Source of the DNA: a virus
Virus record (IMG/VR): IMGVR_UViG_3300023174_000735
Location: 1 to 20,950 of that record
Length of the DNA: 20,950 nucleotides
Reading direction: 5' to 3' (one strand)
Positions 19,289-19,381 of this stretch are shown here, one piece after another. The notes beneath the pieces were generated by a model that saw only the letters and a program-made list of their open reading frames with translations, was not told the DNA's origin and made no database searches. The position numbers were made by a program, and so were the translations under genes. Position 1 is the first letter of the stretch, and the number at the start of each line of letters is the position of its first letter.

Positions 19289-19381
19289 TTTTAGGATCTT
19301 TTCGGCAATATCTTTTTTAGTTGGTTCGAATCCAACATTTTCCGAGGGAAAATGCGCTCTTGGTAGAGCAAAAGAGATCCT
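19289..19381 (+). ncRNA. candidate Y RNA (YrlA-like), unit 4, with circularly permuted tRNA mimic
   Basis: TTTTAG at 19289, closing stem AGGATCTTTT (19293-19302) with AAAGAGATCCT (10 pairs, one G-U), and CGGCAA at 19303-19308, a one-base variant of CAGCAA. The payload has tRNA parts in permuted order: T-arm GTTGG-TTCGAAT-CCAAC (19320-19336), then acceptor 3' strand ATTTTCC, a GAG cap, acceptor 5' strand GGAAAAT (7 perfect pairs), then D-arm GCTC-TTGGTA-GAGC (19356-19369). The ends leave where the anticodon arm would be (TCTTT could pair with AAAGA as an alternative). This matches the tRNA-like module of YrlA-class bacterial Y RNAs as I know it. Confidence 0.75.

What the first reader, a model, noticed from the sequence alone, without database searches (positions are those of the whole stretch)
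19289..19381. Circularly permuted tRNA mimic inside unit 4
T-arm, capped 7-bp acceptor stem and D-arm occur in that order, with the RNA's own ends leaving through the anticodon-arm position. The T-loop TTCGAAT and D-arm GCTC-TTGGTA-GAGC are near-perfect tRNA elements. This is the topology of the tRNA-like module of YrlA-class Y RNAs. It independently supports the Y RNA reading of the whole array. As in YrlA, it could recruit tRNA-modifying enzymes or compete for tRNA-binding proteins.
Basis: partly seen in the sequence, partly recalled or inferred. Interest (0 to 1): 0.87.

Follow-up and report, generated by a model that had tools for sequence, protein, structure and literature searches.

The report
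Phage Y-RNA array with tRNA mimics
A virus of bacteria carries a row of five small RNAs just ahead of a gene for a Ro60-shaped RNA-binding ring protein, and one of them looks like a tRNA whose pieces were reshuffled in a circle; this kind of RNA is known from bacteria, but the row, its variety and its spread among phages appear new.

Summary
Unit 4 (19293-19381) holds a T-arm (19320-19336), a 7-bp acceptor stem capped by 3 nt (19337-19353) and a D-arm (19356-19369), in that order, inside a 10-bp closing stem. A covariance model built from 15 relatives, the window left out, finds it at 45.5 bits (next hit 18). The topology recurs in 18 of 25 testable units (0.34 expected), with all 7 acceptor pairs covarying.

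The Y RNA interpretation is well supported. The ORF 3' of the array models as a Ro60 fold. All 71 loci with enough sequence have at least one such unit near this gene.

Unit 4 is not a member of Rfam's YrlA: 22.3 bits against a cut-off of 69, and the Ro-site consensus is replaced by a stem plus CAGCA/CGGCA.

New beyond the finding: arrays of up to 8 units, commonly with 9-10 nt spacers; units that mimic other tRNA parts, including anticodon hairpins; and 107 candidate phage "tRNAs" whose anticodon arm is the same Y stem turned inside out: the same ring, cut at the acceptor. Binding to Ro60 and function are inferred, not shown.

The parts
18942..18970 (+). possible sigma-70-type promoter (TTGACT, 17 nt, TATGAT) ahead of the array
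   Evidence: consensus scan, 10 of 12; the scan finds 4 sites against 4.5 expected, so weak
18992..19051 (+). unit 1: closing stem GGGATTG/CAATCCC, TTCAGCA, inner hairpin
   Evidence: own detector; fold z -1.0
19062..19152 (+). unit 2: closing stem + CCAGCA holding a tRNA body in the native order D-arm, anticodon arm (loop CTTGTAA, UGU), T-arm; the Y stem takes the place of the acceptor stem
   Evidence: Rfam tRNA 44.6 bits over model 8-63; detector; fold z -4.1 (19059-19153)
19163..19282 (+). unit 3: closing stem AGAGTGG/CCACTCT, ACAGCA, inner hairpins incl. a TTTTTCGATTTCTC element
   Evidence: detector; fold z -0.8
19293..19381 (+). unit 4: the finding; closing stem 19293-19302/19372-19381 and CGGCA 19303-19307 around a circularly permuted tRNA-like module
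19320..19336 (+). T-arm of unit 4
   Evidence: R1 alignment
19337..19353 (+). capped 7-bp acceptor-like stem of unit 4 (cap GAG)
   Evidence: covariation in relatives
19356..19369 (+). D-arm of unit 4 (GCTC-TTGGTA-GAGC)
19391..19444 (+). unit 5: closing stem AGGTTGA/TCAACCT, TTCAGCA
   Evidence: detector
19465..20889 (+). Ro60-fold protein (Pfam DUF2828/DUF7788, PHROG 850); ORF listed from 19453, conserved start MNTF at 19465
20902..20923 (+). terminator-like hairpin after the Ro60-like ORF
   Evidence: 8 pairs, 6 G-C, T tract

Best explanation
Unit 4 is a phage Y RNA of a YrlA-like build. It is one of five RNAs probably cut from one transcript that runs into the gene of their partner, a Ro60-type ring protein. 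Each unit has the same handle (a 6-10 bp closing stem followed by C[ACG]GCA), which I infer is the Ro60-binding end, and a variable head. In unit 4 the head is a tRNA elbow plus acceptor-like stem, made by joining the acceptor strands with a 3-nt cap and letting the RNA's ends leave where the anticodon arm would be. Most likely the handle loads the RNA on Ro60, and the tRNA-like head docks a protein that handles tRNAs (a modification enzyme such as TruB or DusA, a nuclease or a repair enzyme). This would tether it to, or gate, the Ro60 ring during infection. Shown: the array, the topology, its conservation with covariation, and the neighbourhood of a Ro60-fold gene. Inferred: cutting at the AU-rich 9-10 nt spacers, binding to Ro60, tRNA-like folding in the cell, and the docked partner.
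For: Array: 201 units against 1.5 in shuffles, upstream of the gene in 71 loci (threshold 10.5). At threshold 10, 71 of 71 loci have at least one unit, 65 have two or more, and in 64 the last unit ends within 120 nt of the ORF. Spacers of 9 or 10 nt in 61 of 150 consecutive pairs. Motif CAGCA in 164, CCGCA in 29, CGGCA in 9 of 203 units (the detector requires a motif of this kind). Permuted head in 18 of 25 testable units vs 0.34 expected; covariation score 0.759 vs 0.205 shuffled, 0/500. Held-out detection of the window unit; cross-detection of two Rfam-confirmed bacterial YrlAs. Protein: Foldseek's top five are Ro60/Rsr (best 2nvo, 1.5e-7), and VIA-align's top ten are all Ro60/TROVE (Z 16.5-11.9), incl. 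Ro60 of Thermus phage phiLo. Phage contigs picked by tRNA pieces around a CAGCA carry a Ro60-like gene in 52 of 120 cases vs 3 of 96 tandem-tRNA contigs (Fisher p 5e-13). Similar handles or permuted units lie near the gene in named phages of E. coli/Salmonella, Listeria, Mycobacterium and Bacillus.
Against: No RNA or binding data for this phage. Rfam YrlA is missed by 47 bits. The predicted fold is split between the tRNA-like form and an alternative. Unit 4 lacks U8, A14 and a full D-loop, so its elbow may be looser than in a tRNA. Pfam finds no TROVE domain in the protein, no PDB relative is found by sequence, and the model's confidence is moderate (pLDDT 70.7). In Listeria phage cka15 the most abundant published non-coding transcript (26,236-26,727) is not the unit array (25,290-25,552) (PMC12282133). 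KVP40 and several other phages with the protein show no credible unit in the held flank.
Confidence: 0.72

Rival explanations
1. tRNA decoys. The heads mimic pieces of tRNA so that host defence nucleases or toxins that attack tRNAs are soaked up; Ro60 only stabilises them.
For: Heads are diverse and differ between phages: anticodon-like hairpins in 54 of 177 units vs 4.6 expected, in short units 33 of 74 vs 1.4; UGU is the commonest triplet. Listeria LP-048 carries an RtcB-like ligase close by. For YrlA, a role as competitive inhibitor of an anticodon nuclease was proposed by others (PMC7790460, passage read).
Against: Unit 4 has no anticodon hairpin and no free acceptor end, so it fits poorly as bait for anticodon- or CCA-cutting enzymes.
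Confidence: 0.25
2. Leader RNA. The units are not separate RNAs but a 5' leader through which the Ro60-like protein controls its own message.
For: All five window units are on the gene's strand, and in 64 of 71 loci the last unit ends within 120 nt of the ORF; no terminator-like site on that strand lies between array and ORF.
Against: Units are each self-contained with regular spacers, also stand among tRNA genes, and in Felixounavirus and Mycobacterium phages lie after the gene.
Confidence: 0.12
3. Permuted tRNA gene that is processed into a working tRNA, as known for algae and archaea (recalled).
For: Other phages' permuted units include an anticodon-like arm (L009, L037, L057); L064's cap begins with ACCA and so does that of L002's counterpart.
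Against: Unit 4 has no anticodon arm, a 3-nt cap with no room for a leader and CCA, and an outer stem that a tRNA would not need.
Confidence: 0.03
4. Eroded tRNA fragments without function that happen to lie in order.
For: The phages carry many tRNA genes, and a truncated tRNA 5' half lies at about 18163 in the window.
Against: Covariation of the acceptor stem and changed but kept closing stem in L002, 18 of 25 vs 0.34 by chance, linkage to the Ro60-like gene.
Confidence: 0.03

Closest known systems
YrlA (Y RNA-like A) of bacteria, Rfam RF02553; Salmonella YrlA structure 6CU1 (seen only through PMC8394870)
   Same: T-arm, capped acceptor-like stem and D-arm in permuted order; ends in a long closing stem; encoded near a Ro60-type gene
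   Different: 22.3 bits vs 69 cut-off; no GNCGAA-type Ro site, instead stem + C[ACG]GCA; shorter unit; one of five tandem units; partner in Pfam is DUF2828/DUF7788, not TROVE
Putative Y RNAs of Listeria phage CKA15 (PMC12282133, passages and section 8 read)
   Same: Abundant non-coding RNAs near an Rsr-like gene proposed as Y RNAs; by our scan that genome has three C[ACG]GCA units at 25,290-25,552, ahead of CKA15_055
   Different: The passages read give no RNA structure; its most abundant region (26,236-26,727) holds no such unit; coordinates of the other two regions are not in the passages read
Mycobacteriophage 'Ro-like RNA binding protein' loci (e.g. Acquire49)
   Same: Same protein family; three CAGCA units after the gene, one with a permuted module that scores 39.8 bits with YrlA over the whole model
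   Different: Units lie 3' of the gene, and YrlA scores are higher than for the window but still under cut-off
Circularly permuted tRNA genes (PMC3978253, search listing and start of abstract only) and two-piece tmRNA
   Same: Circular permutation of a tRNA body
   Different: Those are processed to working tRNA or tmRNA (recalled); unit 4 lacks anticodon arm and acceptor end

Membership tests
YrlA (RF02553) | permuted tRNA-like module (T-arm, acceptor, D-arm) | tested here: met
   cross-hit to Rfam-confirmed YrlAs
YrlA (RF02553) | score at or above Rfam gathering cut-off | tested here: not met
   22.3 of 69 bits; no YrlA at gathering in 18 relatives' loci
YrlA (RF02553) | Ro-site consensus ggCgaAUG / GNCGAA (printed consensus; the motif name is recalled) | tested here: not met
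   unit 4 reads TTTTCGGCAATA after its stem
YrlA (RF02553) | encoded next to a Ro60 orthologue | tested here: met
   Ro60 fold by model comparison; not by Pfam TROVE
YrlA (RF02553) | binds Ro60/Rsr; carries pseudouridine and dihydrouridine | not testable with these tools
   needs pull-down and modification mapping
Y RNA in the wide sense | non-coding RNA whose two ends pair in a stem that binds Ro60 | tested here: inconclusive
   end stem present and varied in all 5 window units; L002's counterpart keeps it with changed pairs; binding not testable
Ro60/TROVE protein | helical-repeat ring plus vWA domain | tested here: met
   AlphaFold model, pLDDT 70.7: helices 32-243, then a vWA-type domain with DVSGS; best matches all Ro60/TROVE, Z up to 16.5 over 389 residues
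Ro60/TROVE protein | Pfam TROVE match | tested here: inconclusive
   only DUF2828 and DUF7788 match, up to E 10
tRNA | anticodon arm and open acceptor stem | tested here: not met
   absent in unit 4; ARAGORN negative

The most novel reading that the evidence does not exclude
Ro60-partner RNAs of phages are one ring: a tRNA body whose anticodon arm is extended into a Ro60-binding stem with C[ACG]GCA. The ring is cut open at either of two places. Cut at the Y stem it gives the array units (window unit 4); cut at the acceptor it gives long 'tRNAs' with a paired acceptor end, in about a quarter of cases with an encoded CCA, whose anticodon arm is the Y stem turned inside out. Such RNAs are annotated as tRNA-Ser, tRNA-Val or pseudo-tRNA in Cronobacter phage S13, Aeromonas phage Aeh1 and Citrobacter phage Ci1. 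S13 has both forms side by side. The second form would give Ro60 particles a tRNA acceptor end that might be charged or clipped.
Probability: 0.6. Interest if true: 0.82.

Novelty: new variant of a known kind. Interest (0 to 1): 0.68.

Why it matters
Y RNAs have been studied one or two per genome (recalled); here phages carry rows of up to eight, each with the same handle and a different tRNA-like head, next to a Ro60-fold gene. That makes an old question testable: what is the head of a Y RNA for? In one cell, heads can be swapped or removed while the handle stays the same. Felixounavirus phages, some recorded on E. coli K-12 MG1655, carry a clear permuted unit (246 of 252 matching records cover at least 80% of it), so the work can be done in a laboratory strain. 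In Listeria phage CKA15 the Ro60-like protein was found in purified particles (20 peptides, 57.1% coverage; PMC12282133), so such a particle might enter the host at infection; that last step is conjecture. Long odd 'tRNAs' in phage annotations may need to be re-read as Y RNA hybrids.

Tried and rejected
Rfam at gathering score: only tRNA in the window, tRNA and tmRNA in the table shown for 18 relatives (57 lower rows not shown, all under the YrlA cut-off by the table's order). Sequence search of the PDB with the protein profile: no real relative. Pfam, NCBIfam: no TROVE. DNA similarity of the whole array to named phages: no record covers the array; the rows shown match unit 2 only, most of them tRNA-Thr genes. 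Pattern with the array's 3' junction: 5 contigs only, not used further apart from being part of the all-loci scans. Rfam YrlA in the window's own record and control genomes: none over cut-off.

Weak points of my own tests: the unit detector was tuned by eye on the same loci it then counted (first version, revised), and it requires the motif. Its control is dinucleotide shuffling, 1.5 at threshold 10.5 and 18.5 at threshold 10 over 71 loci; many hits inside coding sequence in named phages are false. In one search, 25 units were tested after dropping 'native order' units, units of 200 nt or more, and units with under 38 nt after the T-arm; two of the seven failures (L009 1669, L069 3405) are plainly tandem tRNAs, not units. 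The units were chosen for pairing, so their share paired is not evidence; the variety of pairs is. From 18 passing units, two duplicates and the window were left out to build R1. The count of 107 open-acceptor hybrids includes some false ones (e.g. L063, L224 and L292, where a tRNA boundary was spanned); 86 have a Y stem of 6 bp or more. Within the contigs, those with and without a detected hybrid do not differ significantly in having a Ro60-like gene (33 of 66 vs 19 of 54, p 0.14). The 52 closed units over all loci were not checked one by one; the cap TTGGTC among them looks false.

Literature: Chen et al. 2014 (RNA 20:1715), which from recall reports Y RNAs near Ro60 in many bacteria and phages and their tRNA mimicry, is not in the library; nor are two reviews. 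That arrays or ring permutants are not in print rests on searches of an open-licence library only.

Full report
WHAT IS THERE. The window is a 20,950-base virus record with T4-type replication genes (sliding clamp, clamp loader). Between a tRNA-Leu (18845-18921) and an ORF at 19453-20889 (conserved start at 19465) lie five RNA units at 18992-19051, 19062-19152, 19163-19282, 19293-19381 and 19391-19444, with spacers of 10, 10, 10 and 9 nt. Each begins with one arm of a stem, then C[ACG]GCA, and ends with the other arm followed by G.

UNIT 4. Rfam's YrlA model covers 19289-19402 from its first to last position with the three arms in register, at 22.3 bits (cut-off 69, E 0.029). As RNA, 19290-19383 folds better than shuffles (z -3.2). 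The exact tRNA-like form is 0.5 kcal/mol above the minimum, and its acceptor and D arms have about one-third probability; an alternative pairing of acceptor and D strands competes. The D-loop is short and positions 8-9 are GC, not UA. Other relatives of the short kind also lack U8-A9 in whole or part (L003 558, L004 2894, L011 3777).

RELATIVES. The protein was used to fetch 80 viral loci; 70 of these and the window have at least 300 nt upstream. A detector for stem + motif + stem finds 201 units in 71 upstream stretches versus 1.5 in shuffles (threshold 10.5), and 23 in 186 kb downstream. At threshold 10 every one of the 71 has a unit within 1,200 nt, 65 have two or more, the largest count is eight, and in 64 the last unit ends within 120 nt of the ORF. 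Of 150 consecutive pairs, 61 have spacers of 9 or 10 nt and 104 have 25 nt or less. Of 203 distinct units 164 have CAGCA, 29 CCGCA and 9 CGGCA.

PERMUTED HEADS. Of 25 T-arm-bearing units with room for the test, 18 pass the strict topology (acceptor at least 6 of 7 pairs directly after the T-arm, 2-nt linker, 4-bp D stem), against 0.34 expected when the tail is shuffled. In 15 distinct ones without the window, 96.6% of cells pair, all 7 acceptor pairs show changes on both sides, and the covariation score is 0.759 (shuffles 0.205 +- 0.030; slid structures at most 0.190). Model R1 from these 15 finds the window unit at 45.5 bits, finds two bacterial YrlAs that Rfam confirms (L181 76.1 and L196 76.4 bits with Rfam; 50.7 and 41.9 bits with R1), and finds the counterpart in the closest relative L002 at 28.9 bits. 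R1 also scores tandem ordinary tRNAs at 30-45 bits, so context is needed to call a unit. In several relatives the permuted head also has an anticodon-like arm with a 7-nt loop (e.g. L009, L037, L057), so it is a whole tRNA opened between D-arm and anticodon arm. The window's unit 4 lacks that arm.

OTHER HEADS. Unit 2 of the window holds the tRNA body in native order, with the Y stem where the acceptor stem would be (Rfam tRNA 44.6 bits). L030 and L031 also carry both orders. Anticodon-like hairpins occur in 54 of 177 units (4.6 expected), and in 33 of 74 short units (1.4 expected); UGU is commonest (14 of 54).

THE PROTEIN. Pfam knows it only as DUF2828/DUF7788; PHROG 850 'RNA-binding protein'. 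682 of 50,697 phage records have a relative. The AlphaFold model (pLDDT 70.7) matches Ro60 first: Foldseek 2nvo 1.5e-7; VIA-align Z 16.5 (9kop, Trove domain), 15.8 (9l5y, Ro60 of Thermus phage phiLo), and Ro60/Rsr/TROVE for all of the first ten rows. Depositors of an Ochrobactrum phage reached the same by HHpred.

A SECOND FORM OF THE SAME RING. In Cronobacter phage S13, Citrobacter phage Ci1 and Aeromonas phage Aeh1, records annotate 113-122 nt 'tRNAs'. Their acceptor stem is open, D- and T-arms are normal or nearly so, and in the anticodon position stands the Y handle inside out: 3' arm, 4-5 nt loop, 5' arm, then CAGCA or CCGCA. A scan of all loci held gave 107 distinct candidates in 78 loci, 86 with a Y stem of 6 bp or more, 25 with encoded CCA. 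In contigs found by D-arm + CAGCA + T-arm with a good acceptor, 52 of 80 have a hairpin of 6 bp or more just before CAGCA, against 7.5 when shuffled; with a poor acceptor it is 1 of 18 against 0.75. A Ro60-like gene lies in the held flank in 52 of 120 of these contigs, against 3 of 96 tandem-tRNA contigs. S13 carries two open forms and one closed form in a row (L327 4895-5015, 5025-5137, 5154-5288; the second was read by eye, its T-stem being imperfect). Tandem duplication of an open form would give the closed form; caps that begin with ACCA (L064; L002) hint at that origin (inference).

NAMED PHAGES. Felixounavirus GEC_vB_NS7 has a closed permuted unit at L329 5428-5552 whose minimum-energy fold shows all three arms. 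246 of 252 matching records cover 80% or more of it, some recorded on E. coli K-12 MG1655; in NS7 an annotated small ORF overlaps it. Mycobacterium phage Acquire49 has three CAGCA units by eye, one permuted (YrlA 39.8 bits). Listeria LP-048 and cka15 have three units before the gene. KVP40, an Ochrobactrum and a Stenotrophomonas phage show none that I believe.

LITERATURE SEEN. PMC8394870 (passages): YrlA's tRNA-like domain resembles D, T and acceptor arms, is a substrate of DusA and TruB, and tethers PNPase to Rsr. PMC7790460 (passages): YrlA is not cleaved by the tRNA nuclease; a decoy role is proposed. PMC12282133 (passages and section 8): in Listeria phage CKA15 very abundant non-coding RNAs near an Rsr-like gene may be Y RNAs, and the Rsr-like protein is found in particles. 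PMC7765460 and PMC7824862 (passages): Ro60/TROVE proteins in jumbo phages. Phage Y RNAs as such are therefore not new.

VERDICT. Observation confirmed; interpretation right in kind, wrong if it means membership of YrlA. The best reading is a phage Y RNA family with its own Ro handle and exchangeable tRNA-like heads. Function remains to be shown.

Noticed in passing
L327 4895-5015, 5025-5137; L322 4894 and 5015; L331 7199: Long odd phage 'tRNAs' (tRNA-Ser, tRNA-Val, pseudo) are tRNA bodies with an inside-out Y stem in the anticodon position, i.e. circular permutants of the array units; 107 candidates in all loci held.
   Followed up: partly
window 19062-19152: Unit 2 holds a tRNA body in native order with the Y stem in place of the acceptor stem, next to the permuted unit 4: two ways of hanging a tRNA on the same handle in one array.
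   Followed up: partly
many relatives, e.g. L006 1396-1448, L021 3617-3677, L009 3917-3977: Short units whose only head is an anticodon-like hairpin with a 7-nt loop, often CTTGTAA (UGU) or CTTGAAA (UGA). Why UGU is favoured is unexplained.
   Followed up: partly
window unit 3; L034 3801, L041 2289, L047 3831, L053 3870, L064 3733, L065 3862 and others: A recurrent hairpin like a T-arm with an enlarged loop (GAGTTTCGATTTCTC type), often followed by AAAAAGTAG, in longer units.
   Followed up: no
L002 8019-8357: The window's closest relative carries a permuted, alphaproteobacterial-type tmRNA (RF04321 99.9 bits, RF01849 98.1 bits), which hints at an alphaproteobacterial host.
   Followed up: no
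L330 1486-1977 / cka15 26,236-26,727: The most abundant non-coding RNA of Listeria phage CKA15 (PMC12282133) has no Y handle by our scan; it looks like a separate unknown RNA of about 490 nt.
   Followed up: no
window 18150-18921: A tRNA 5' half at about 18163, then an ORF that by eye is an HNH-type endonuclease (no Pfam match), then tRNA-Leu with a similar 5' start (74% over 23 nt): looks like a homing-endonuclease insertion at a tRNA.
   Followed up: no
window 5106-6413: TET/JBP-type oxygenase (PF12851, 8.5e-18), suggesting modified DNA bases in this phage.
   Followed up: no
window 3208-3795 (-), 12045-12776 (-), 13254-13925 (+): Three ORFs that by eye start like GIY-YIG endonucleases (YTYLIGW.., YVYAYLR..); not tested.
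   Followed up: no
window 20931-20950: A tRNA seems to start at the very end of the window (GCCGGTGTGGTGTAATGGTA), after the terminator-like hairpin of the Ro60-like gene.
   Followed up: no
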